DNA of 64,000 nucleotides, from positions 5,766,001 through 5,830,000 of the forward strand of contig NZ_JADWYI010000001.1 of the NCBI RefSeq assembly GCF_016904885.1, in the 5' to 3' direction. This stretch comes from Archangium primigenium (GTDB lineage Bacteria > Myxococcota > Myxococcia > Myxococcales > Myxococcaceae). Every line of letters begins with the position of its first letter. Within the stretch, counting starts at the first letter, position 1. The notes beneath the pieces are model-generated. The model made no database searches. It was not told where the DNA came from and was given only the letters and a program-made list of their open reading frames with translations. Both the position numbers and the translations under genes were made by a program. This document shows, one piece after another, positions 6,256 to 62,685 of the stretch.

Positions 6256-8388
6256 TCAGCGGCGGCGGGTCTCGGGGAAGATGGGCTCCAGGAGCCGGTG
6301 CTCTCCGCCCTGCACGTGCACCTCGAACACCTCGCGCAGGCGCGGCGTGCCCGTGGTCTCCACGACGACCTTGCGATCGCCCGCCTTCACCGGGAGGTTC
6401 ACCAGGGGCAGCGCGCGCTTGATGCGCACGCCGTCCACGTACACCCGCGCCGGGCGGTTGGCCCGGATGGTGAGCCAGGCCTGACTGGCCTTGGCGTCCT
6501 CCCGGGGGGTCTCCACGGGCACGGGCGGGGTCGGCTCGGGGCTGGGCGGCGGGGCGGCCGGCTCGCGCAGGTACTCGCGCACGGTCTCGCTCACGGCGGC
6601 GACCTTGGGATCCGGATCCTCCTCGCGGGTGCGCTGGACGAAGCGCCACATGCCGAAGGCGAAGCAGACGAGCCCCACCCCGGCCACGCTGCCCGCCACG
6701 GACATCATCCGGCGCCGACGCCGCGCGTCCTCCAGGAGGTTGCGCTCCTCGGTGAACAGCCGCCCGCCCCGGCCCCCGGCCGCGGGCACCTCCAGCTGGG
6801 AGGGCGCGGGCACGGCGGCGTAGTCCTCGGACGCCACGGACGCGGGCGGGGGCGCGGGCGGCGGCCGCGGACGCTGGCGCGCCACCGTCACCTCGATGCG
6901 ATCCGTGTCGCGCAGGTCGTCCGGATCCACCGGATGCGAGGACGCGGCCACCGGGGTGCCCGGCGCGGGCTTGGAGAAGTCCTCCACGAGCCGCAGGCGG
7001 GGATTCTTCCCGATGCGCGTGCCCTCGCCGCCCCCCGACAGGGACACCGGCGCGCGGCGCGTGGACTTGACGGGCGGGGCACCGGGCGGCGCCACCCACG
7101 TCTGCTCGTCGTCCTTGGGCGGGCCCTCGGGGCGCTCGGGCGCGCGGGCGACGACGCCGCGCTCCCCGCCGCGCTGGCGGCCGAAGTGGGTGACCTCCAC
7201 GCCCGGCGGCGCCGTGCCCACGGCGGTGCGATCGGGCTCGCCCGGGGTGATGATGTGGGTGGACTCGAGCACCTTCGCCGGGGGCGCCAGGGCGATGCCG
7301 GGCGGCGGGGTGTCCGGGAACATGGACGGGTGGTACTCCTCGAAGGCGGGCGGCGCGTCCATGGTGTCCGCGTCATTGGGCGCGGGGCTGAACGGCACGC
7401 GCGCCACCACGGACTTCTCCAGGGCGTCCGCGCGCAGCTGCGCCAGCGAGGACACCCCGGAGATGGGCGTGAGGGGGAACGCCTCGGCGAAGGGCACCGG
7501 CCCCGGCGTGGTGAGCGACACCCCGTTGGGCACCAGCTCGGTGATGAAGCGGCGCACGTCCTCGGCCCCGGGCAGGCCGCCCTGGTTGGACAGGAAGCCG
7601 CGCAGCGCCTGGGCCATCTCCGCGCACGAGCCGTAGCGCCGCGTGGGCGTGGCCTCCAGGGCGCGCAGGATGATGGGATCCAACTTCGCGTGCAGGCGCC
7701 GATCCAACCGGCTGGGCGGAGGCAGGGCCGCGCGGCGCGTGCTCACCCCGCCGCCGCCATCGCCGATGACGGCCTCGCGCAGGGTGAGCAGCTCGTAGGC
7801 GATGGCGCCGATGGAGTAGAGGTCCGAGAGCGACGTGGGCTCGCCGCCCTTGCCCACCTCGGGGGCGCGGTAGGCGCTGCGGCCCCGCGCGAAGGCCCGC
7901 TTGAGCTCCGGGACGGCCAGGAGCGCCTGCAGCGCCCCGAAGTCACACACGTGCGGGTGGCCGTCACGCGAGAGCAGCACGTTGGCCGGGGTGATGGCGC
8001 CGTGCACCACGCCCGCGCCATGCGCCAGGTCCACGGCATCGAGGATCTGGATGATGAGGCTGAGCGCCACGGACGGCGGGAGGATGACCTCCTTGGTGTT
8101 GAGCCGCTGCAGGGCCAGACCCAGGCTCGGGCCGTCCACCGCCTCGCGCACCACGGCCAGGCGGTTCTTCACGAAGCCCATGTCCAGCACGTGCACCACG
8201 CCCTCGGCCGACAGGGGGTTGAGCACGCCATAGGTGGCGGCGAGCGTGGTGGCGTAGCGCGTGTCCGACGTCTTCGCGGTGAAGAGCTTGATGACCACCG
8301 GGAGCCCCTCGGGCTCCTGGACGGCCTCGTACAACTCGGAGAGCTCTCCGGCCTCGGTGCGGCCGGTCAACCGGTAGGTGCTGCTCAT
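6256..8388 (-). CDS. Membrane-anchored Ser/Thr pseudokinase with PEGA-like C-terminus
   Basis: A 710-residue protein. The N-terminal 1-270 has the eukaryotic-like kinase fold with the ATP-anchoring Lys (PVVIKLF) and DFG (VCDFGAL), but the catalytic loop reads HGAITPAN instead of HRDxKPxN (about residues 126-133). The catalytic Asp and the following Lys are both replaced, and the Gly-rich loop is degenerate. A long Pro-rich linker leads to one membrane segment (about 558-580). A beta-rich PEGA-like domain (about 630-700, with RPARVYVDGVRI) would lie in the periplasm. ATG 8388 has GAGGA just upstream; an ATG at 8454 is possible but has none. It lies between lysR and the response regulator in a minus-strand operon. 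It probably acts as a scaffold or sensor rather than an active kinase. Confidence 0.85.
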   Translation of the reverse strand: MSSTYRLTGRTEAGELSELYEAVQEPEGLPVVIKLFTAKTSDTRYATTLAATYGVLNPLSAEGVVHVLDMGFVKNRLAVVREAVDGPSLGLALQRLNTKEVILPPSVALSLIIQILDAVDLAHGAGVVHGAITPANVLLSRDGHPHVCDFGALQALLAVPELKRAFARGRSAYRAPEVGKGGEPTSLSDLYSIGAIAYELLTLREAVIGDGGGGVSTRRAALPPPSRLDRRLHAKLDPIILRALEATPTRRYGSCAEMAQALRGFLSNQGGLPGAEDVRRFITELVPNGVSLTTPGPVPFAEAFPLTPISGVSSLAQLRADALEKSVVARVPFSPAPNDADTMDAPPAFEEYHPSMFPDTPPPGIALAPPAKVLESTHIITPGEPDRTAVGTAPPGVEVTHFGRQRGGERGVVARAPERPEGPPKDDEQTWVAPPGAPPVKSTRRAPVSLSGGGEGTRIGKNPRLRLVEDFSKPAPGTPVAASSHPVDPDDLRDTDRIEVTVARQRPRPPPAPPPASVASEDYAAVPAPSQLEVPAAGGRGGRLFTEERNLLEDARRRRRMMSVAGSVAGVGLVCFAFGMWRFVQRTREEDPDPKVAAVSETVREYLREPAAPPPSPEPTPPVPVETPREDAKASQAWLTIRANRPARVYVDGVRIKRALPLVNLPVKAGDRKVVVETTGTPRLREVFEVHVQGGEHRLLEPIFPETRRR

Positions 8389-8474
8389 CCCGTCCTCGGG
8401 TGCGGCGCGGCGATGGACGATGGGCGGCGAACGAGGGACTTCATGGGGGGCCATGAGCGTGCCACGTCGCCTCT

Positions 8475-9401
8475 TCACCCCGCAAGCGGGGAGCGCCGCA
8501 GCCCGTCGACGAGCAGCCGGGCGAACGGGGATAACCCGTCGAGGCGGCGCACGCACAGGGTAAGCTGGCGCCGGGCCCAGACGTCCTCCAGAGGGACGGC
8601 GCGCAGGCCGAGCGGGCGCCGCCAGCGCCGGGCGGCCGCCCCGGGCACCACCCCCACCCCGCCCCCGAGCGCCACCACCCGGCACACCTCCTCCACGCCC
8701 CGCGGGCGCAGCCGGTAGCGCGGCGGACGGCCAAGCCGAAGGGCCTGGGCCTCCAGCATCTCCTGGAGGGCGCTGCCCTCGGCGAGGCCGACGAGGGGCT
8801 CGTCCAGCACCTCGGCGAAGGCCACCGCGCGGCGCATCGCGAGGCGGTGCCCGGGCGCCATCACCACCGCGAGCCGGTCCTCCTGGAAGGCGAAGGTCTC
8901 CAGGCCGCCCAGGTCCACCGTGTCCGCCACGAGTCCCACCTCGACCCGGCCCTCCGCCACGGCCTGGACGATGTCCGGGCTGGGCCGCTCCTCCAGTTCC
9001 ACGTCCACGAGCGGATGCTGGGCGAGGAAGGCGCCGAGCGCTTCCGGGAGCGCGCCGGACAGGGCCGCCGTGTTGCACAACAGCCGCACGCGCCCCCGCA
9101 GCCCCTGGGCATGCAGGGCGATGGCGCCTTGGAGGTGCTCCACCTGGAGGAGCACCGCGCGGGCCTCGGGCACCAGGGCCTCGCCCGCCGACGTCAGCCG
9201 CACGCCCCGCCCCCGCCGCTCCAGCAGCGCCACCCCCCACCCGTCCTCCAGGCGGTGGATGCGCTCGCTCGCGGCGGCGAGGGACAGGTGCACCCGCCGG
9301 GCCCCCCGGGTGATGCTGCCCGTCTCGGCCACCGCGAGGAACAGCCGCAGGTCGGTCAGGTCCGTCAGCGCCCGGGAGAGCGCCTCCCGTGTCGGGCTCA
9401 T
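8475..9401 (-). CDS. LysR-family transcriptional regulator
   Basis: A 308-residue regulator with the family layout: an N-terminal winged helix-turn-helix (about residues 16-75, LRLFLAVAETGSITRGA) and a C-terminal effector-binding domain (about 100-300). Its ATG overlaps the stop of the dehydratase/mutase gene (ATGA), so the two are translationally coupled. LysR regulators are more often divergent from their targets, and here the gene sits inside the operon. The effector is not known; an aromatic precursor such as prephenate is a guess from context. Confidence 0.92.
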   Translation of the reverse strand: MSPTREALSRALTDLTDLRLFLAVAETGSITRGARRVHLSLAAASERIHRLEDGWGVALLERRGRGVRLTSAGEALVPEARAVLLQVEHLQGAIALHAQGLRGRVRLLCNTAALSGALPEALGAFLAQHPLVDVELEERPSPDIVQAVAEGRVEVGLVADTVDLGGLETFAFQEDRLAVVMAPGHRLAMRRAVAFAEVLDEPLVGLAEGSALQEMLEAQALRLGRPPRYRLRPRGVEEVCRVVALGGGVGVVPGAAARRWRRPLGLRAVPLEDVWARRQLTLCVRRLDGLSPFARLLVDGLRRSPLAG

Positions 9402-10681
9402 CGGGCCGGGCCGAGGGCGGCCAGGGCCTCCGCGAGGCGGTCACACTCGCCGGGGGTCAGGCCCGAGGCGGCGAGCTGCGCGCGGGTCTGGCGCCGCAGG
9501 GCGTCGGGCGCCAGGCCGCCGGGGACCCGGGGCACGAGCGTGGCGATGCGCGCGCTGATCCGCGCCAGGGCCGCGCGCAGGTCCTCGAGGGAATCCGCGG
9601 GCCCGTCCGTGCGGGGGGCACGCGCCTGCACCTGCTTGGCCGCGTCCATCTGGGCCTGGAAGAAGGCGGTGATGGCGGCGTCCGAGGGCGCGGGCAGGCC
9701 CAGGTCGCGCGCGGCCTGATGCACGTCACGGCGGGCGGCCTCCAGCACCCGGGCCTCCTGCTCGGGCACCTCCAGGGGCACACCCGCGCGCCGCTTGGCC
9801 TCGGCCACCCGCGGCATCAGCGCCAGGCGCTCGGCGGTCGCGACGAGCAGCGCGTCCACGGGCGTGGCGGTGGCCTCCCGGGCGCCCTCGCCCAGGTACC
9901 TCTCCCGCCACCGCGCCAGTGCCCCGCTCGCCTCCTGGGCCAGGAGCCACGTGTCCAGATCCGCGGCGAGCTCCGCGCGCGAGGCCTCCACGTAGAGCGC
10001 CACCGTGTCCTGGGTGAAGGGCCCCACCCGCTCGAGGCCCGTGAGGCCCTCGGCCCAGCGGGGGCCCTCGACGGTGTTGGTGAGCAGCGCGTCGGCCTGG
10101 CCCGAGACGAGGGCCTCGCGCACCGCGTTGCCGGGAATGGCGAGGATGCGCGCGTGCCGGAAGTGGGCGCGGGCCACGCGCTCCAGGTGGCCGCCGAGGT
10201 TCACCGCGAGCCGGAACTCGGGCCGGTCCAGCGCCTGGAGGGTGGCGAGCGGGGCCTCGGGACCCGTGGGCGCCGGGGCCCAGGCCGGACGCCGCAGGAG
10301 CACCAGGGCCCCGTTGCGCGCCACGGGCACCGTGTAGCGCCCCACCAGCGAGCGCTCGGGCCGGAGGGTGAGGCCGCTGGCGGCCAGGTCGAAGCGGTGG
10401 GCGGTGAGGTCCGCCACCAACCCGGGCCAGTGGAAGCGCACCCACTCCAGGCGGTAGCCGCGCTCGGCCGCGTAGGCATCCAGGAGCGCGGCGTCGAAGC
10501 CGGACACCCGGCCGTCCTCCCGCATCGAGGTGAAGGGCGGATAGTCGCCGCTGGTGCCCACGCGCAGGACGGGGGCCTCGCGCGCGGCGGGGGCCGTGGC
10601 CGAGGGGGTGGTGCACGCCGCGGCGAGGGCCAGCACCGCGCCCACGAGGACGGCACGGACACGAAGGACACAAGGAGCCAT
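9398..10681 (-). CDS. Lipoprotein: cyclohexadienyl dehydratase-chorismate mutase (AroQ-gamma) fusion
   Basis: A 427-residue fusion. A lipoprotein signal (LALAAACTT) leads into a type 3 solute-binding fold typical of periplasmic cyclohexadienyl dehydratase PheC (about residues 38-250; RVGTSGDYPPFT and GFDAALLDAYA). A helical domain at about 265-350 (LLVATAERLALMPRVAEAKR, then FFQAQMDAAKQVQ) has the pattern of secreted gamma-type AroQ chorismate mutases. Together they could turn chorismate into prephenate and then phenylpyruvate (or arogenate into phenylalanine) outside the cytoplasm. An extra helical tail (about 360-427) follows. ATG 10681 gives the lipoprotein signal. It is the first gene of the minus-strand operon. 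The dehydratase call rests on family resemblance; an amino-acid-binding role for that domain cannot be excluded. Confidence 0.82.
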   Translation of the reverse strand: MAPCVLRVRAVLVGAVLALAAACTTPSATAPAAREAPVLRVGTSGDYPPFTSMREDGRVSGFDAALLDAYAAERGYRLEWVRFHWPGLVADLTAHRFDLAASGLTLRPERSLVGRYTVPVARNGALVLLRRPAWAPAPTGPEAPLATLQALDRPEFRLAVNLGGHLERVARAHFRHARILAIPGNAVREALVSGQADALLTNTVEGPRWAEGLTGLERVGPFTQDTVALYVEASRAELAADLDTWLLAQEASGALARWRERYLGEGAREATATPVDALLVATAERLALMPRVAEAKRRAGVPLEVPEQEARVLEAARRDVHQAARDLGLPAPSDAAITAFFQAQMDAAKQVQARAPRTDGPADSLEDLRAALARISARIATLVPRVPGGLAPDALRRQTRAQLAASGLTPGECDRLAEALAALGPAR

Positions 10682-54239: not shown

Positions 54240-56117
54240 ATGACGCCCATGAGCCAGGTTCGCTATCAGTTGCTGGGTCCCCTCATCCCGGGTGAGGGCA
54301 CCCGGCCGTCCCTCGCCCTGGCCCTCGAGCAGGGCGCGCCCCCCGTCCCGGTGGTGGTGGTGTGGGCGCCGACCGAGGTCGCCCAGGACGCCATGATGCT
54401 GGCGCGGCTCCAGAAGGAGACGGAGCGCGCGGTGGTGTTCGAGCACCCCCACATCCTGCGCGTGCACGGCCTGGTGACGCTGGATGGCCGGGTGGCGCGT
54501 GTCACCGAGTACGCCGACGGTGAGCCGCTGCGTCACGTGCTGGATGTGTGCCCGCGGCTGCCCCCCCCCTTCGCCGCGCTGATCGCCGCGGACGTGGCCA
54601 TGGGTGTGCACTACGCCCACGTGGCGGGCAACGATGACGGCACGCCCTTCGTCCACGCGGATCTGCGGCCGGAGACCATCATGGTCTCCTTCCACGGCGT
54701 GGTGAAGGTGTCCGGCTACGGCGCGCTGAGCGTCGCGCCTCGCGAGGGCAATGGCCGCCGCGTGCGCAACCGCCGCCTGTACAGCGCCCCCGAGCAGCTC
54801 ATGGGCGGACGCGAGGCCTCGTCGGTCCCCACGGACGTGTTCCTCCTGGGCCTCTTGCTGCACGAGTGCCTCTCCGGGCGCAAGCCGTTCCAGGACTCCA
54901 TCGATCCGGACAAGGCCATCCTCTCGCGGCCCCTGCCACCCTTGCCCGAGGAAGTGCCGCTGCCCTTCAACGAGGTCATCCGCCGCGCCACGGCCAAGCG
55001 CGCCAAGGAGCGCTACGCGAGCGCGCTGGCGTTCCGCGAGGCGCTGGTGGCCATCGTGGGCGAGCTGCCCACGCCCACCGCCCTCGCCGAGTTCCTCGCC
55101 AAGCAGCTGCCGCGCGACACCGAGACGCGGCGCGCACGCCGGGCGATGATCGATCAGGGCATCGTCGAGCTGACGCACCCGGCGCCCTCGGCGGCGCTCG
55201 TGGCCGCGCCGATGCCGGTGGCCGCGCCCGCCGCCCCGGCTCCCACTCCAGCGCCCGCCCCGGCGCCCGTCGTCGAGGCCGCGCCCGCGCCCCGGTTCGA
55301 GGCGGCCTCGGTGCTGCCCACGCCCCTGCCGCCCACGCCGGGCATCGAGGTGCCGCCCGCCGCCACCGCCCAGCCCCAGGGCGAGCCCGTGCCGGTGACG
55401 GGGCCGCTCGTGCCCGGCATGCTGGTGACGCCGCCCGCCGCGCCCGCGCCGGCCAGACGCTCGCGCCGCGCCTCCACGGCCCTCATCAGCGCGGTGGGTG
55501 TCGGGCTGCTGGTGAGCGCCGTGGGCCTCATCTGGACCATCCGGGGCCGGCCCGCACTGTCGGTGACGGATGACACGGGCGCGCCGGTGGACATCACCGC
55601 GCCGGTGCTCATCGTCGAGGAGCCCGTGGACGCGGGCGTGCCGCCGCCCACGGTGCAGCCCAAGACGGGCAGCGCGGTGCCGGTGGTGCCCGCGGCCACG
55701 GTGCCGCCCACGCTCGTGGAGCTGATGGTGAGCCCCGACGTGGCCATCGCCATCGACGGCCGGAACATGGGCCACACGCCCTTGCAGGTGCCGCTGCCGC
55801 CGGGCCGTCACATGGTGACGCTCGTGGACGAGGCCAAGGGCCTGCGCACCGCGCGGCTCATCGACGTGCGGCAGACGACGGAGAAGGTGACGTTCAACAT
55901 CAAGCTCACCATGGGCTCGGTGCTCATCCAGGCGCCCGCGGGCGCCCAGGTGTCCCTGGATGGCCGGGCGCTGGGCACCGCGCCGGTGGTGGATCAGACG
56001 ATCTTCGAGGGCGAGCACCGCCTGCGCGTCACCCAGGACGACGCCGTCTGGGAGCGCGACTTCGTGCTCACCGGCGAGCAGCGCCTGGTCTTCACCGCGG
56101 ACATCATCGGGGAGTAG
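54240..56117 (+). CDS. Membrane-anchored Ser/Thr pseudokinase with two PEGA domains
   Basis: A 625-residue protein. The N-terminal kinase-like domain (about 1-290) keeps the HRD-type Asp in FVHADLRPETIM (about 137-148). The DFG is replaced by SGYG (about 157), the VAIK lysine by VVVVWAP, and the Gly loop is absent, so ATP binding and catalysis are unlikely. A Pro/Ala linker (about 310-410) leads to one membrane segment (about 413-436). Two periplasmic PEGA domains follow (about 495-560, AIAIDGRNMGHTPLQV; and 562-625, VSLDGRALGTAPV). ATG 54240 has a good GGAGGG site; ATG 54249 is also possible. It is monocistronic with a hairpin after it. Likely a sensor or scaffold. Confidence 0.86.
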   Translation: MTPMSQVRYQLLGPLIPGEGTRPSLALALEQGAPPVPVVVVWAPTEVAQDAMMLARLQKETERAVVFEHPHILRVHGLVTLDGRVARVTEYADGEPLRHVLDVCPRLPPPFAALIAADVAMGVHYAHVAGNDDGTPFVHADLRPETIMVSFHGVVKVSGYGALSVAPREGNGRRVRNRRLYSAPEQLMGGREASSVPTDVFLLGLLLHECLSGRKPFQDSIDPDKAILSRPLPPLPEEVPLPFNEVIRRATAKRAKERYASALAFREALVAIVGELPTPTALAEFLAKQLPRDTETRRARRAMIDQGIVELTHPAPSAALVAAPMPVAAPAAPAPTPAPAPAPVVEAAPAPRFEAASVLPTPLPPTPGIEVPPAATAQPQGEPVPVTGPLVPGMLVTPPAAPAPARRSRRASTALISAVGVGLLVSAVGLIWTIRGRPALSVTDDTGAPVDITAPVLIVEEPVDAGVPPPTVQPKTGSAVPVVPAATVPPTLVELMVSPDVAIAIDGRNMGHTPLQVPLPPGRHMVTLVDEAKGLRTARLIDVRQTTEKVTFNIKLTMGSVLIQAPAGAQVSLDGRALGTAPVVDQTIFEGEHRLRVTQDDAVWERDFVLTGEQRLVFTADIIGE

Positions 56118-56167: not shown

Positions 56168-58204
56168 TCAGGCCAACTGTCTGGCCAGCCCGACGCGCAG
56201 CAGCGACTCGACGTGCGCGCGTGTTTCCGCGTCCAGGATGAACACGTGGGTGCCCCGCGTCCCGCGCGTGAGCAGCACCCGGTAGACGTTGCGCAACTTG
56301 GCCAGGGCCTCGGCTTCACTCGTGCGCACGTCCCGCTTGAAGGTCTTGTCCTTGTTCTTGGAGAGGTCCGCGACCCACCGGTCCGTGCGCCAGACGAGAT
56401 CCTCGCCCCAGATCACGCCCACGTGATCGAACTCGAAGCCCTGCACCGAGTAGATGGAGCCCACCTGCTCGTAATAGGCATCCTCGTTGGCCCAGCGGTA
56501 ATACTGATTGTCCAGGGGCTTGCGCCCCTGTCCCGTCTTCTCGATCCAGGGCGCGCTCCAATCCCCGAAGCGCTTGTCCTTCACGTCGTGCACGAGGCGG
56601 GTGGCGCCCGTCCCCACCGGGGACCATGACCAGCAGTACCCCGCGATGATCCGGCAGCGGTAGTTCTGGTGCTGGAGCGTGCGCAGCCGCCGATCCATTC
56701 GTGCCATGTCGGTCTCGACCGTGACCTCGTACTCCTCGCGCGTCTTCCAGGAGAGGTCGGCCTGCGGCGAGAAGCCCAACAGCATGTCGACCCATTGGAC
56801 GTAGCCATCGCTGCCTCCACACCGGAACTGAATGTCCAGCTCCAGCTCGACGAGCCGCACGCCCATGCGCTTCGCGGCCTCGCGCACGACATCCGAGTGA
56901 CCGATCTCCCCCGCGCGCACCGCCTGGTGGTCATCGAGGAAGAAGGCCGTGACATGGCTCGCGCTGATGACCTCCTCGATCATCGGCGTGTCGGAGAGGT
57001 GGCGAATGGTGCCATTCGGGAACTTCAAGCGCCGGAACTCCCACAGCCGATGCGCCTCGTCGGCGACCGTCAGGTCGAGGACCTGTCCTTGACGTGCTCC
57101 CGCCTTGGCGACCTCCGAGAAGGTGCAGAAGAGCTCGTCCACGGGGAGCTCCTTCTTGAAGCGCGCGCCTTGGAGCTGCTTGTGCAGGTTCGCCGCGAAC
57201 GCGAGGGTCTTGCCCTGGAGGTTGGTCTGAAAGGCCTGGGAACCCGTCGCATGAATCACCCGCCAGCTCTTGCGCGCGCCATGGGCCAGGAGTTGAAGGG
57301 CGAGGACACTCTTTCCCGTCCCCGGCCCGCCCTTGATCAACACCACCGTGCGCGTGCCATGGGCGCGGCCCTCCTCCACGGCGGTGATGATTCGCAGGTA
57401 GGCCTGCCGCTGCACATCGAGAAGCCGCCACTCGAACTCGCCATGAATCGTCTGAACGACCATGTCGAGCAACTTCTCCGAGGGGCGTGGACGCCCGGTG
57501 GCGATGAGGTGCGCCGCCCGGGTCCCCTCGCCGTGTCCGAGCTGCTCCTGAAGCCATTGCGCGAACCGCCCCAGCTCCCGCTTCATGAACAGGGGATATT
57601 CGCGAGCGAGATCCCCGAAGGCGTCTGGATCCCTCAACAAGGCGATGGCGCGGACATCCTCCATCGCATGGAGCCAGACGCAACCCGTGATGTGGACGCC
57701 CTCCTGCACGAACGCGGAGTGGTAGTAGCGCAGGTAGTCGACGTAGCCCTTGACCTGGGCGGAGGGATGACGGCGGCTGTCATTCATGACGACCACCTCC
57801 TCGCGCCAGGGAGATTTGCCCACACTCGTCCACTGCTTGAGTTCGACAACCACGGCCGCGGGCGCGCCCTCGGGCTCGCGCCCCGTCAACACCGCGTCAC
57901 AGCGGCGTCCGCCCATGGGCATCCACAGTTCGACGAAGATCTCCGAGCGGCACAGGCGCTCGTCGCGGAGGACCTCCGCCAACGCGCGCAGGGAGTGCTT
58001 CCACGACTGCTGCTCACCACTCGAAGGGGCCTCGCCTTCGATGACCTCGAATCGCTTCTTCAGCAGACCGGGAAGCGTGCCCGCGTCCACGTCCTCGAGG
58101 AATCGAGGAATCGGTGCTCGGTAGAGATGAGGTGTCCCGACGCGCGACAGCGAGGCGGCTGTGTCCTCACTGTCCGCGACGCCAGGAAGAAGGTCCGAGG
58201 GCAT
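56168..58204 (-). CDS. PD-(D/E)xK nuclease fused to a DUF2075 superfamily 1 helicase
   Basis: A 678-residue fusion. The N-terminal ~190 residues have a restriction-enzyme-like core: Asp in RRCDAVLTG (about 102) and ELK in AVVVELKQW (about 120). A helicase follows: Walker A IKGGPGTGKSVLA (about 288-300), Walker B LTVADEAHRLW (about 380), and late motifs YSVQGFEFDHVGVIWG and NVYRVLLTRGTRGTHVF. This is the DUF2075/helicase architecture often seen in mobile defence genes. Single-gene nuclease-helicase phage defence (for example Nhi in staphylococci) is a known analogue but not a demonstrated homologue. Codon use is less GC-biased than neighbours. ATG 58204 is preferred; a longer frame reaches 58270. 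Confidence 0.88.
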   Translation of the reverse strand: MPSDLLPGVADSEDTAASLSRVGTPHLYRAPIPRFLEDVDAGTLPGLLKKRFEVIEGEAPSSGEQQSWKHSLRALAEVLRDERLCRSEIFVELWMPMGGRRCDAVLTGREPEGAPAAVVVELKQWTSVGKSPWREEVVVMNDSRRHPSAQVKGYVDYLRYYHSAFVQEGVHITGCVWLHAMEDVRAIALLRDPDAFGDLAREYPLFMKRELGRFAQWLQEQLGHGEGTRAAHLIATGRPRPSEKLLDMVVQTIHGEFEWRLLDVQRQAYLRIITAVEEGRAHGTRTVVLIKGGPGTGKSVLALQLLAHGARKSWRVIHATGSQAFQTNLQGKTLAFAANLHKQLQGARFKKELPVDELFCTFSEVAKAGARQGQVLDLTVADEAHRLWEFRRLKFPNGTIRHLSDTPMIEEVISASHVTAFFLDDHQAVRAGEIGHSDVVREAAKRMGVRLVELELDIQFRCGGSDGYVQWVDMLLGFSPQADLSWKTREEYEVTVETDMARMDRRLRTLQHQNYRCRIIAGYCWSWSPVGTGATRLVHDVKDKRFGDWSAPWIEKTGQGRKPLDNQYYRWANEDAYYEQVGSIYSVQGFEFDHVGVIWGEDLVWRTDRWVADLSKNKDKTFKRDVRTSEAEALAKLRNVYRVLLTRGTRGTHVFILDAETRAHVESLLRVGLARQLA

Positions 58205-58292: not shown

Positions 58293-59261
58293 CTACAGCA
58301 GTCCGTCCAGCACGGACTGCCACAGCAGCTCGCCCGCCGTCTCGTAGGCGCGCTCGGGGTCCACCAGCGGCAGGGACAGGCGGGGCGTGTGTGCCAGCCG
58401 CTCGTCCACCACCACCCGGGGGGCCTGCTCGCGGAGCAGATTCACCAGCGCCCGCATGTTGTCGAACGCCGACAGCTCCCGCCTCGCCCCCAGGCCCGCG
58501 AAGTCCGTGTCCCGGGTGAAGGACAGCCACAGCCCCTCCCCATAGGCCCACAGGAAGGGGTGGACGTCGTCCTCGCGCACCGTCACCTCGCGCGTCCGGG
58601 GGCGGCGGTTGAAGCCGTCCTTGACGATCTCCGTCTCGGTGCGCGTCGTGGCGACGAGCCGCTTGCCCGGCAGGAGCAGGCGCACGTCCTCCCAGCGCAC
58701 CTCCCGGCGCTCGCCCCGCTCCCCTTCCAGCGCCAGCCCCGTGGGCCCCACGGAGAAGCGCCGCACCCCCAGGGGCGTGGCCAGGCGCGACAGCAGCTCG
58801 CCGCTCACCACCGCGAAGCCCTCGGCCCGCAGCGAGTCCCGCACCCGGCGCGCCTCGGGCAGCGGCATCCGCGCCAGCACCACGGGCGGCGGTTTGCCGA
58901 GCCGCAACCGGAGATCCACGAGCCCCATGCGCAACGTCCGCCCCAACCGGCCCAGGGCCTCCTCGTCCTCCAGGGACGGCACCCGCATCAGCGCCAGCAG
59001 GCCGGTGCTCAAGGTGAAGGACTCGGTCCGCACGGGCACCGGGGCGGGCTCGGCCACCGGCGGAGGAGGCGGCGGCGCGGACGTCGGCTCGAGACGGGCC
59101 CGCAGCTCGGCCACCTCGCGCCGGGCCTGCTCCAACTGGCGCTCCAGGGACTCGCGCTCCCGCGCGTAGTGCGCCCGCAGCTTCGTCAGGGCCTCCTTCG
59201 ACTGGCGCAGCTCCACCTGGGTGCGCTCCAGCCGGTCTCGCAGCTCTCGCGTCTCGCTCAT
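58293..59261 (-). CDS. Coiled-coil protein of unknown function
   Basis: A 322-residue protein. Residues 1-60 form a strong heptad coiled coil (LERTQVELRQSKEALTKL, ARERESLERQLEQARREV). A Pro-rich linker (about 62-80) follows, then a globular domain (about 85-322) with VRWEDVRLLLPGKRLVATTR and FLWAYGEGLWLSFTR. I do not recognise the family. It starts 5 bases after the LysE gene ends and is co-transcribed with it. Confidence 0.75.
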   Translation of the reverse strand: MSETRELRDRLERTQVELRQSKEALTKLRAHYARERESLERQLEQARREVAELRARLEPTSAPPPPPPVAEPAPVPVRTESFTLSTGLLALMRVPSLEDEEALGRLGRTLRMGLVDLRLRLGKPPPVVLARMPLPEARRVRDSLRAEGFAVVSGELLSRLATPLGVRRFSVGPTGLALEGERGERREVRWEDVRLLLPGKRLVATTRTETEIVKDGFNRRPRTREVTVREDDVHPFLWAYGEGLWLSFTRDTDFAGLGARRELSAFDNMRALVNLLREQAPRVVVDERLAHTPRLSLPLVDPERAYETAGELLWQSVLDGLL

Positions 59262-60916: not shown

Positions 60917-61717
60917 ATGTGCCCTCCAGGTCTCCGACGCCTGCTCCTCCTGTGTGGAGCCCTGATCCAAGCCGCGTGTGCCTTCCCCATGCCCCATCGG
61001 GGTGGGCCCGGCATGCGGCCCGTGGGACGCTCTCCAGGCGTGACGTCTCGCTACGAGCAATCCTGCGCACTCCATCCCGCCTGTGCGACTCCCTCGCTCA
61101 GCGGAGAACTGGTCGCCCCGGCGGTCTTGAACACCACGGTCAAGGTGGTGCAGACGGTGCGTGGCGTGCTGACCTTGAAGGACTTCCTGGACGAACAGGA
61201 AGTGGCCCAGGTCGAGGACATCCTCGTGCAATGCGCCAGGGACGCGGATTTTCAGGTCAACGAGCGAGAGTATGGTCGGGGCAAGGTCCCGGACGACAAC
61301 GAGTGTGAACGGGTCGTTCGTCACGACCGGGATGGTGGCGAGGTGACGCGTGCCATGGAACTCGGGACGATGAAGCACGCGGAAGCTTTCGCGTGTGTCG
61401 AACGGCGTCTGGGCCCGCGATTTCCCGAGCATCTGAGCCGGGAACCTCGTTACGGCAGGAGCCCCTCCACGGGCGGGTATGCGCTCAGCGATAGGAAGAA
61501 AGACTCGCTCGTGCCGGACATCGTCCTGCATTTCATGCGCGATGCGAACAGGATCCAACGCCTCTACGACTTCTACTTTCCCTGCACTCGCCAGAAAAAG
61601 AGCAATCCCCTGGGCGAGGCGGAACAAACGCTTCGAGACAAGCTGGGGAAGTACGAACGGCTTCCGGGCGCGCACCCTCGATCCCTCGTCACCCCCCAGC
61701 TGGGAATCAGCCGATGA
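60917..61717 (+). CDS. Lipoprotein toxin-like protein with degenerate PD-(D/E)xK nuclease-like domain
   Basis: A 266-residue protein. The lipoprotein signal ends GALIQAACAF (Cys21). A ~55-residue linker (22-75) precedes a C-terminal domain (about 78-255) with ELGTMKHAEAFACVERRLG, LVPDIVLHFM and IQRLYDFYFPCTRQKK. I associate PDxV...YDFKFPC with nuclease-type polymorphic toxins in myxobacteria and RHS proteins. Here the expected Lys is Tyr (DFYFPC), so catalysis may be lost or altered. It overlaps the DUF3396 gene (ATGA), as a toxin overlaps its immunity gene. Outer-membrane lipoprotein exchange toxins of the SitA type are the likely relatives. The start (ATG 60917) gives the lipobox. Confidence 0.74.
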   Translation: MCPPGLRRLLLLCGALIQAACAFPMPHRGGPGMRPVGRSPGVTSRYEQSCALHPACATPSLSGELVAPAVLNTTVKVVQTVRGVLTLKDFLDEQEVAQVEDILVQCARDADFQVNEREYGRGKVPDDNECERVVRHDRDGGEVTRAMELGTMKHAEAFACVERRLGPRFPEHLSREPRYGRSPSTGGYALSDRKKDSLVPDIVLHFMRDANRIQRLYDFYFPCTRQKKSNPLGEAEQTLRDKLGKYERLPGAHPRSLVTPQLGISR

Positions 61718-62685
61718 GCCACCCATGGCCCGTCATCCGCCATGTCTCCGCACGGGATCCCGGACGACTGGTCGTACGTGAGGTCATCCGGCTCGTGCTG
61801 TACCTGCCATGCGATCACGTGGAAATCGCCGGCCAGGTGAGCCAGGTTTTCGAGACGTATCTGCGGTCCGTGAGCGGCCATCCCCTCCCCTTCTCCGAAT
61901 ACTCTCTGGGAGGGGACACGACCCCGCTGAGAGCGGACGGTTGGACGCGGATTCGCGACGCCCTGTCGCCTCCTCGAGGAGAACGCTTCCTGGAGGACGA
62001 GGACGACGAGGCGTATGTCGATCGCCGGGTGAAGGCCGGGTTCCAACGGATGGTTCAGCTGTCGAGCCTGGACGCGGGCGTCAGTGGCTTCGGCTTCTTC
62101 TATTGGGCCCGGCTCCCATGGCGCGAGCCCGTGGAGGATGAGGTCAGTCTACTGAGCCTGTCCTGGCCCACGGAGTACCTCGCGGCGCAGGGGTCCGAGC
62201 ACCTGCGAACACTGCTGATTCAATTGGCCTCCCTGCTGCCATTTTCCTCGGGGCATGCGGGCCTCGCGTTCTCCTCTCCGAACCTCCAGGGACCTCCGCT
62301 GGAACGGGTCCGCGACGAGGCGCTCCGCTACCCAGGCGTCGAGGTCACGCACGGGCAGCGCTTCCTCGGGGCCTGGATCGACGGCATCCATTGGCTCAAC
62401 TTCCTGGGTCCCGACGCCTTGAAGGCCCAAGGTGGCATCGAGGCCCTGCGCTCCAAGCTGCGGGCGCCGGAGACGCTCCTCCAGGAGATGCCCGGGGGCG
62501 GGGCCCTCGTGACCTTGGGCGCCGAGCCCGAGGCGGGAGACCTGGCCCAGGGGCAACGGCTGCCCGCGTACCGAGAACTGGCGCATGTCCTGGACGCCAC
62601 ATTGCTTCCCTGTCCACCCCAGCTCACCTGGCGAGGGTGGTTGCCCGAAGAACCCCGTCGCTGGTGGCGGCGATTCCTCGACTGA
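61714..62685 (+). CDS. DUF3396 type VI immunity-like protein
   Basis: A 323-residue cytoplasmic protein. The region EYLAAQGSEHLRTLLIQLAS, then SGHAGLAFSSPNLQG and GIHWLNFLGPDALKAQGGIE matches DUF3396, found in immunity proteins of nuclease effectors (for example the TsiV-type partners of VRR-NUC effectors). Trp/Arg-rich segments near the end (RRWWRRFLD) are unusual. ATG 61714 overlaps the upstream stop, so translation is coupled. It is probably the protector against the neighbouring toxin-like lipoprotein; this is inferred from family and context. Confidence 0.82.
   Translation: MSHPWPVIRHVSARDPGRLVVREVIRLVLYLPCDHVEIAGQVSQVFETYLRSVSGHPLPFSEYSLGGDTTPLRADGWTRIRDALSPPRGERFLEDEDDEAYVDRRVKAGFQRMVQLSSLDAGVSGFGFFYWARLPWREPVEDEVSLLSLSWPTEYLAAQGSEHLRTLLIQLASLLPFSSGHAGLAFSSPNLQGPPLERVRDEALRYPGVEVTHGQRFLGAWIDGIHWLNFLGPDALKAQGGIEALRSKLRAPETLLQEMPGGGALVTLGAEPEAGDLAQGQRLPAYRELAHVLDATLLPCPPQLTWRGWLPEEPRRWWRRFLD

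What the first reader, a model, noticed from the sequence alone, without database searches (positions are those of the whole stretch)
56168..58204. Solitary PD-(D/E)xK nuclease-helicase fusion
One gene has a nuclease core (D...ELK) joined to a DUF2075 helicase with complete Walker motifs, and atypical codon use. This fits a one-gene antiviral system comparable to known nuclease-helicase immunity proteins.
Basis: partly seen in the sequence, partly recalled or inferred. Interest (0 to 1): 0.6.

Follow-up and report, generated by a model that had tools for sequence, protein, structure and literature searches.

The report
Lone nuclease-helicase fusion, likely anti-phage
A myxobacterium carries a rare, mobile gene whose protein joins a DNA-cutting domain to a DNA-unwinding motor; related genes often sit among virus-defence genes, many beside a small nucleotide-hydrolysing enzyme that this copy lacks.

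Summary
The gene is real and exactly placed (56168-58204, minus strand, 678 aa). Residues ~26-240 have a PD-(D/E)xK nuclease core: E92, D103, E121, K123 are kept in 29 of 29 aligned rows; the fold match is modest (best Z 7.2). Residues 285-658 are the Schlafen-group-3 SF1 helicase (E 1.7e-73). Codon use is only mildly low: 17 of 110 sampled genes are as low.

The family is patchy (5 of 195 phylum genomes, 2 of 4 in the genus). DNA shared with four relatives' 20 kb stretches lies only inside the gene. Relatives occur on plasmids, viral contigs, and beside an integrase.

New here: 13 of 28 family loci hold a MazG-like gene, 10 within 0.6 kb, including both 49%-identical myxobacterial relatives. 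No such gene was found in the window genome or its two closest copies: a solitary version of an often two-gene module. Catalogued PDC-S41 and Nhi/AbiO are only distant relatives.

Defence is the likeliest role (0.65), untested. Bolder: the nuclease domain resembles the linker domain of animal Schlafens.

The parts
56168..58204 (-). PD-(D/E)xK nuclease + SLFN-g3 (DUF2075) SF1 helicase fusion gene, 678 aa
   Evidence: ORF and translation; Pfam
57485..58129 (-). N-terminal PD-(D/E)xK nuclease domain, residues 26-240
   Evidence: model of residues 25-240, mean pLDDT 79.5, pTM 0.81; VIA-align rows; alignments
57989..58006 (-). SWKHSL motif, residues 67-72 (W68 and S71 invariant in 11 rows)
   Evidence: position comparable to the SWADL motif of Schlafen linker domains (inferred from range ends and passages)
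57929..57931 (-). E92, first acidic residue of the nuclease core
   Evidence: 29 of 29
57896..57898 (-). D103, metal-binding Asp of the nuclease core
   Evidence: 29 of 29
57836..57844 (-). E121-L122-K123, ExK motif
   Evidence: E and K in 29 of 29
57743..57757 (-). Q150-xxx-Y154, RecB/Cas4-like motif (name recalled)
   Evidence: Q in 28 of 29, Y in 27 of 29
56231..57352 (-). SF1 helicase domain PF09848, residues 285-658
   Evidence: E 1.7e-73, full profile
57308..57331 (-). Walker A GGPGTGKS, residues 292-299
   Evidence: G292, G293, P294, G295, G297, K298 invariant in 11 rows
57050..57061 (-). Walker B DEAH, residues 382-385
   Evidence: invariant in 11 rows

Best explanation
A horizontally acquired, solitary anti-phage effector. 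The Schlafen-group-3 SF1 motor binds foreign DNA in an unusual state (ends, forks or single strands made during phage replication), moves along it with ATP and feeds it to the fused PD-(D/E)xK domain, which cuts it; either phage DNA is destroyed or the cell is lost with the phage. In much of the family a neighbouring MazG-like enzyme, which by family (recalled) hydrolyses nucleoside triphosphates, would change the nucleotide pool during the attack or set the trigger level; the window's clade acts without it. Shown: domains, invariant catalytic residues, purifying selection, patchy presence, similarity to relatives confined to the gene, MazG linkage, and restriction or mobile-element genes near several relatives. 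Inferred: DNA as substrate, the trigger, the order of events, the role of MazG, and defence itself.
For: Nuclease core residues kept in 29 of 29 rows and low dN/dS in both halves. Patchiness: full-length matches in 5 of 96 genomes of the family (14 of 96 with any match) and 5 of 195 of the phylum at E <= 1e-30. The G034, G053, G018 and G039 stretches share DNA with the window's stretch only inside the gene, and in G034 the best matches of the two window neighbours lie megabases away. Relatives: 21 plasmid records with at least 80% coverage; 5 contigs of a viral collection, one with the gene between head genes and portal/terminase genes and two more with tail genes in the same stretch (L036, L042, L043); one chromosomal copy beside an integrase (L024); one beside a PDDEXK_4 nuclease and a protein matching PDC-M60C over its first ~125 residues (L023). 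Of 17 of the 21 plasmid records opened, 15 carry annotation, and all 15 have within 6-8 kb at least one gene annotated as restriction/endonuclease, DNA methylase, cas, DUF3883, DUF3578, DUF262 or nucleotide pyrophosphohydrolase, a broad list read without a control. MazG linkage in 13 of 28 loci; this MazG subfamily is rare, 6 copies in 96 genomes, 2 of them directly 3' of this nuclease-helicase. Nhi and AbiO profiles match the helicase half. In the window a candidate defence pair, PDC-M20A/B, lies 2.7 kb away, but see against.
Against: No activity has been measured. The PDC-M20 pair near the gene is an expanded family here (12 and 18 matches in this genome, up to 26 and 39 in G032) and only a candidate itself; the adjacent kinase-like gene matches PD-T4-6 kinase models (117.6 bits) but such kinases are common (58-122 matches to it per genome in 8 genomes). 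There is no tRNA in the window, and I saw no integrase near the gene. Codon use is only mildly low. No PADLOC model covers the protein in full; PDC-S41, itself only a candidate, scores 78.5 bits against 714 and 679 for L025 and L027. Plasmid neighbourhoods had no matched control. One close copy (G053) has an in-frame TAG between the two domains. The MazG profile was trained on 6 of its 14 hits, MazG linkage is not clustered on the tree, and 15 of 28 loci show no MazG.
Confidence: 0.65

Rival explanations
1. Selfish or inter-element function: a cargo gene of plasmids, phages and integrative elements that excludes competing elements (superinfection or plasmid exclusion) rather than serving the host. 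Same chemistry, different beneficiary.
For: 21 plasmid records with at least 80% coverage and viral-collection contigs with the gene among structural genes; G039 copy beside an integrase.
Against: Around the window copy and the G034 copy I recognised no plasmid, phage or integrase genes; this rests on reading translations, with PADLOC run on ten window ORFs and no mobile-element library run there.
Confidence: 0.2
2. DNA repair or recombination enzyme (RecB/AddB- or Dna2-like end processing) acting on the host chromosome.
For: D...ExK...QxxxY arrangement and SF1 helicase resemble RecB/Dna2-type enzymes (recalled); Dna2 and RecD2 are among the fold matches of the helicase half.
Against: No match at E <= 1e-30 in 190 of 195 phylum genomes, no shared flanks, frequent on mobile elements.
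Confidence: 0.08
3. RNA- or tRNA-cutting, Schlafen-like abortive effector: the helicase half senses nucleic acid and the nuclease cuts RNA.
For: The helicase is the Schlafen group 3 domain, and the whole model aligns, loosely and in the same order, with SLFN11.
Against: No Schlafen core (AlbA_2-type) domain was found by Pfam; the nuclease is of the PD-(D/E)xK type, whose fold matches are mostly DNA nucleases (functions recalled), though Can2/Card1 among them may act on other nucleic acids (recalled).
Confidence: 0.07

Closest known systems
PDC-S41 (PADLOC phage-defence candidate, single gene)
   Same: Same order of domains: PD-(D/E)xK core (E, D, E, K kept in 4 of 4 aligned rows) plus SLFN-g3 helicase (L025).
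   Different: Window protein scores 78.5 bits in 3 stretches, against 714 and 679 bits for L025 and L027 (the other three of five loci of this type, L026, L028, L029, were placed by similarity, not by PADLOC); separated by a 100/100 branch; 0 of 5 such loci has the MazG gene.
Nhi (nuclease-helicase immunity, Staphylococcus epidermidis) and AbiO (Lactococcus, recalled)
   Same: Single protein; helicase halves are homologous by profile. Nhi is reported to be activated by phage single-stranded-DNA-binding protein (passages of PMC10732053).
   Different: No profile match over the nuclease half; the Nhi paper itself is not held and no AbiO paper was sought.
GIY-YIG + SLFN-g3 helicase fusions (L057, L058, L059, L060)
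   Same: Same helicase family (Pfam E 2e-58 to 1.1e-87), same partners in places (MazG 3' of L058; DUF3578 5' of L059).
   Different: GIY-YIG nuclease instead of PD-(D/E)xK: over the Pfam cut-off in L057 and L058, just under it in L059, weak in L060.
Animal Schlafen group II/III proteins (SLFN11, SLFN12, SLFN14)
   Same: Homologous helicase family by Pfam name and weak profile match (SLFN11 E 0.0055); linker/middle domain similar in predicted fold to the nuclease domain, in the same order along the chain.
   Different: Schlafens have an N-terminal RNase core (passages of PMC12215978 and PMC9482658); no sequence-level match of the linker was found.
Bacterial Schlafens with anti-phage activity (a 2025 preprint cited in PMC12839542; passages only)
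   Same: The name Schlafen.
   Different: As described in those passages they are Schlafen-family RNases, a different domain from the helicase here; the preprint itself was not seen.

Membership tests
PF09848 SLFN-g3 helicase family | Match over the Pfam gathering score (24 bits) across the domain | tested here: met
   248.3 bits, profile 1-354 of 354
PD-(D/E)xK nuclease superfamily | Acidic residue, Asp and (D/E)xK placed on the strands of the core | tested here: met
   E92, D103, E121, K123 in 29 of 29; secondary structure of the domain model
PD-(D/E)xK nuclease superfamily | Fold match to solved members | tested here: inconclusive
   29 of the 31 listed rows with Z 5.0-7.2 are such nucleases or XisH-type relatives (assigned from titles and recall), the other 2 are Schlafens; but all Z are below 8, Foldseek alone gives nothing at E <= 0.001, and Pfam finds no nuclease family for the window's domain (NERD in 3 of 11 members, best E 0.035)
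PDC-S41 | Full-length match to the PADLOC model | tested here: not met
   78.5 bits in 3 stretches against 679-714 for L027/L025
Nhi | Profile match over nuclease and helicase halves | tested here: not met
   17.3 bits, residues 269-344 only
Nhi | Demonstrated anti-phage activity | not testable with these tools
   no experiment
MazG + nuclease-helicase module (this report) | MazG-like gene next to the nuclease-helicase | tested here: not met
   No match at E <= 1e-10 in G000, G034 or G053; no PF12643 match at E <= 0.001 in G000 or the 19 other genomes searched (G053 not among them)
Schlafen linker domain | Homology of the nuclease domain to the linker/SWADL domain | tested here: inconclusive
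   SLFN12 387-542 Z 7.1, rmsd 3.7, 125 aligned; SLFN14 401-555 Z 6.5, rmsd 3.7, 126 aligned; no sequence match

The most novel reading that the evidence does not exclude
The prokaryotic PD-(D/E)xK-SLFN helicase protein is the source of the linker-plus-helicase part of animal Schlafens: the Schlafen linker domain, whose SWADL motif has no known function, would be a remodelled PD-(D/E)xK nuclease domain. In prokaryotes the same effector would be a modular, often MazG-paired defence system that exchanges its nuclease head (PD-(D/E)xK or GIY-YIG) and can drop its MazG partner, as in the window.
Probability: 0.3. Interest if true: 0.8.

Novelty: new variant of a known kind. Interest (0 to 1): 0.5.

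Why it matters
It would add a widely scattered branch, not covered in full by any PADLOC model, to the nuclease-helicase defence proteins; point to a recurring partner, a MazG-like nucleotide hydrolase (0 of 6 such proteins match a PADLOC model); and offer a natural comparison of partner-linked and solitary versions within one bacterial family. If the Schlafen link holds, it also gives an origin, and a testable role, for the SWADL/linker domain of human SLFN11, SLFN12 and SLFN14.

Tried and rejected
Codon use as evidence of foreign origin: weak, 17 of 110 genes are as low; an earlier, cruder comparison inside the window (8 of 32 ORFs lower) included wrong-frame ORFs and was dropped. Membership in PDC-S41, Nhi or AbiO: rejected on profile coverage. 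Flanking repeats or tRNA as marks of an insertion: no tRNA in the window; only short, imperfect repeats, most likely chance. Empty-site test: not possible in the usual form, because in G034 the best matches of the two flanking genes are megabases apart; the place is a break in gene order. MazG linkage as one ancestral trait: the tree needs 8 changes for its 10 MazG-labelled rows (7 forced by starred branches), no fewer than shuffled labels (225 of 500 as low); that tree has 8 open forks and 11 rows of odd composition. 'Lost in the window's clade' is therefore an inference from G018 and G039 being the next rows by path, in an unresolved part of the tree. Sequence-level link of the nuclease domain to Schlafen linkers: not found (the hits are mostly armadillo-repeat and designed proteins, judged spurious). 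Foldseek alone with the domain model gave nothing at E <= 0.001. Paper searches (open PubMed Central only): DUF2075 + phage + defense 0; DUF2075 5, none on defence by title; PDC-S41 0; Schlafen + phage defense + bacterial + nuclease 4; Nhi 1; DUF3883 1; PADLOC candidates 4; Schlafen + prokaryotic terms 10; MazG + anti-phage + nuclease + helicase 5, none about this pairing by title or abstract start; Schlafen + SWADL 1. Of the papers I saw passages only, of PMC6299218, PMC12839542, PMC3710099, PMC11514479, PMC12215978, PMC8875196, PMC10732053 and, by DOI, PMC9482658. Subscription journals and preprints were not searchable, so nothing is claimed to be absent from print beyond these searches.

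Full report
WHAT IS THERE. The finding's coordinates are exact: a 678-residue ORF on the minus strand, 58204 to 56168. Upstream on the same strand, ending at 58293, is an uncharacterised gene (P0003); downstream and convergent is a kinase-like gene with a long tail, 54240-56117 (P0004; PADLOC kinase models match its N-terminal half). PADLOC on ten window ORFs between 48050 and 63989 also finds full-length or nearly full-length matches to the two-gene candidate PDC-M20 at 60917-61717 (PDC-M20A, 233 bits) and 61714-62685 (PDC-M20B, 375.7 bits), 2.7 kb from the gene on the other strand with other genes between. That family is expanded in these bacteria: 18 PDC-M20B and 12 PDC-M20A matches in this genome, 8-39 and 5-26 in six others, so its nearness says little. 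There is no tRNA in the window.

DOMAINS. Pfam gives the Schlafen group 3 SF1 helicase over residues 285-658 (E 1.7e-73, full profile). No family model covers the N-terminal half of the window protein. An alignment of 11 full-length relatives at 26-78% identity shows invariant W68, S71, E92, R101, D103, E121-L-K123-Q-W125, H146-P147, Q150 and Y154. In a set of 29 rows E92, D103, E121 and K123 are kept in 29 of 29, Q150 in 28 and Y154 in 27. That set includes 4 rows of the PDC-S41 type; it leaves out the interrupted G053 copy, the broken-frame L049 and L052, the near-duplicate L056, the PDC-S41-type L026, the partly fetched L012, L015, L017 and L018, and the GIY-YIG fusions. The full-length model is poor (mean pLDDT 66.3, pTM 0.49), the domain model better (79.5, 0.81, with the other four models between 51.9 and 67.7). 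Its elements, strand 64-70, strand 76-85, strand 91-99, helix 123-141, strand 147-154 (add 24 for gene numbering), put D103 and E121/K123 where a PD-(D/E)xK core has them. VIA-align gives Can2 (Z 7.2, rmsd 4.3, 136 aligned), VC1899, Kpn2I, BstEII, EndoMS, McrBC, Shedu and Card1; every Z is below 8, so the fold match alone is modest and the case rests on the conserved residues together with it.

SELECTION AND CODON USE. Against the G034 orthologue dN and dS are 0.142 and 0.930, and both halves are constrained. GC3 is 0.857; a sample of 110 genes from ten 20 kb stretches of the same genome has mean 0.919 and SD 0.063, with 17 as low or lower.

DISTRIBUTION. With the protein as query, 14 of 96 genomes of the taxonomic family match, but only 5 over the full length: G000, G034 (80%), G053 (78%, one in-frame TAG), G018 and G039 (49%). 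The other 9 are short C-terminal matches; the proteins behind them look like a second subfamily, of which two of two scanned fit PDC-S41 in nearly full length. In the genus 2 of 4 have the gene. Over the phylum it is 5 of 195 at E <= 1e-30. G053 is the genome of Pyxidicoccus caerfyrddinensis, judged from the shared contig length. tblastn finds 39 plasmid records, 21 with at least 80% coverage, from Actinomycetota, Bacteroidota, Bacillota, Pseudomonadota, a cyanobacterium and Archaea (phyla partly recalled), and 4 phage records, 3 with such coverage.

MOBILITY. blastn between the 20 kb around the window gene and those around the four relatives aligns only stretches inside the gene; for G034 the similarity runs from window 56194 to 58138, for G053 from 56199 to 58143. 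In G034 the gene is at 1.447 Mb while the best matches of the window's two neighbours are at 8.198 and 6.512 Mb. The G039 copy lies beside an integrase (phrog_1, E 9.7e-20), and the L036 copy between head genes and portal/terminase genes of a viral contig.

THE MAZG PARTNER. A profile built from six MazG-like neighbours was run over the ORFs of 28 loci of this architecture. The loci differ in length, and some end close to the gene on one side (L037, L043), so misses are not equally firm; L033 and L056 look like the same region. It hits 13 of 28: within 0.6 kb of the gene in L023, L024, L031, L032, L036, L037, L042, L047, L049 and L055 (L049's helicase gene is in broken frames); one gene away in L044; several kb away in L030 and L046, the latter beside an HNH gene. 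Five of the 13 were training sequences (L031, L032, L036, L044, L055); the other eight were not. It hits 1 of 4 GIY-YIG-type loci (L058, also a training sequence), 0 of 5 PDC-S41-type loci, and 0 of 10 other 20 kb stretches of G000. Five of five of these proteins that were scanned with Pfam are MazG-like, PF12643, over the cut-off (L032, L036, L044; L023, L024). Searched over 96 genomes with an alignment that includes the G018 and G039 copies, this subfamily has 6 copies in 5 genomes at E <= 1e-10, none in G000, G034 or G053; two lie immediately 3' of the nuclease-helicase, in G018 and G039. Of the other four, two lie beside a gene whose product carries HNH_2 (L079, L080) and two beside a gene that looks alike (L077, and L078 where the open frame is only 131 aa, not scanned). 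On the tree the closest rows to the window pair by path are G018 and G039, both MazG-linked, but linkage changes at least 7-8 times and is not clustered.

OTHER NEIGHBOURS. Of 21 long plasmid matches I opened 17; two have no annotation (L045, L047). Five Streptomyces loci have a DUF3883 gene next to the helicase gene (L033, L048, L050, L051, L056), and L052 has a longer DUF3883 protein; DUF3883 has been described as a novel restriction-enzyme domain (passage of PMC3710099). DUF3578 proteins with weak matches to restriction-enzyme models precede L031 (PD-(D/E)xK type) and L059 (GIY-YIG type). No matched control was made for these plasmid neighbourhoods.

RELATION TO KNOWN SYSTEMS. PDC-S41 is the nearest catalogued candidate but fits another subfamily (714 and 679 bits; window 78.5). 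Nhi and AbiO match the helicase half only. Nhi, Hna, Hachiman and AbpAB are described as responding to phage single-stranded-DNA-binding protein (passages of PMC10732053), which suggests the trigger proposed here; that is analogy, not evidence.

SCHLAFEN LINK. The full model's third Foldseek match is human SLFN11 (E 4.6e-4), and VIA-align places model residues 31-590 on SLFN11 404-888 (Z 9.7, but rmsd 15.9, so only loosely). The nuclease domain alone matches SLFN12 387-542 (Z 7.1, rmsd 3.7, 125 aligned), a Schlafen without helicase (recalled), and SLFN14 401-555 (Z 6.5). SLFN11's linker is residues 354-576 with the SWAVDL motif at 444-449 (passages of PMC9482658); the motif's function is called unknown (passage of PMC8875196). 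Counting from the aligned start (404 to 31-33), 444 falls near residue 71-73, a few residues from the bacterial SWxxSL at 67-72. This uses range ends only, not a residue alignment; S67 is Ala in G034, G018 and G039; and no sequence match was found. In the passages I saw, the structural analogy between Schlafens and restriction enzymes concerns the RNase core, not the linker (PMC12215978). It is a lead with about 0.3 probability.

VERDICT. A real, intact, apparently mobile nuclease-helicase gene, probably defensive; a solitary version of a family that often carries a MazG-like partner. New variant of a known kind.

Noticed in passing
L023:10994-11320 (+), L024:15386-15706 (-); also L031, L032, L036, L037, L042, L047, L049, L055: MazG-like pyrophosphohydrolase genes within 0.6 kb of the nuclease-helicase; 6 of 6 MazG proteins scanned (one of them from the GIY-YIG locus L058) match no PADLOC model.
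   Followed up: yes
L077, L078, L079, L080 (genomes G067, G041, G040, G039): The remaining four copies of the same MazG subfamily in 96 genomes: two sit beside an HNH_2 nuclease gene, two beside a similar-looking gene; a possible second MazG-nuclease pair.
   Followed up: partly
L057:2395-4248, L058:2506-4245, L059:2488-4134, L060:2374-4131: GIY-YIG-type nuclease (over the cut-off in two, weaker in two) fused to the same SLFN-g3 helicase on lactobacillus and Paenibacillus plasmids, one followed by a MazG gene: exchange of nuclease heads on one motor.
   Followed up: partly
window 57485-58129 (nuclease domain): Predicted fold resembles the linker/middle domain of human SLFN12 and SLFN14; the SWxxSL motif lies about where the Schlafen SWADL motif would fall.
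   Followed up: partly
L022 (G053) at 9657-9659; same copy in L019: The Pyxidicoccus caerfyrddinensis copy has a TAG codon between nuclease and helicase halves, while both halves stay similar to the window protein: decay, sequencing error or a split gene.
   Followed up: partly
L023:11207-14743 (-) and 7667-8602 (-): Beside the G018 copy: a large WD40 protein whose first ~125 residues match PDC-M60C, and a PDDEXK_4 nuclease, which looks like a defence island.
   Followed up: partly
window 60917-62685 (+): Two adjacent genes match the two-gene PADLOC candidate PDC-M20A/B over nearly the whole models. The family is strikingly expanded in these myxobacteria: 8 to 39 PDC-M20B matches per genome in seven genomes, none in 14 control genomes, which is odd for a defence system and more like a lineage-specific paralogous family.
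   Followed up: partly
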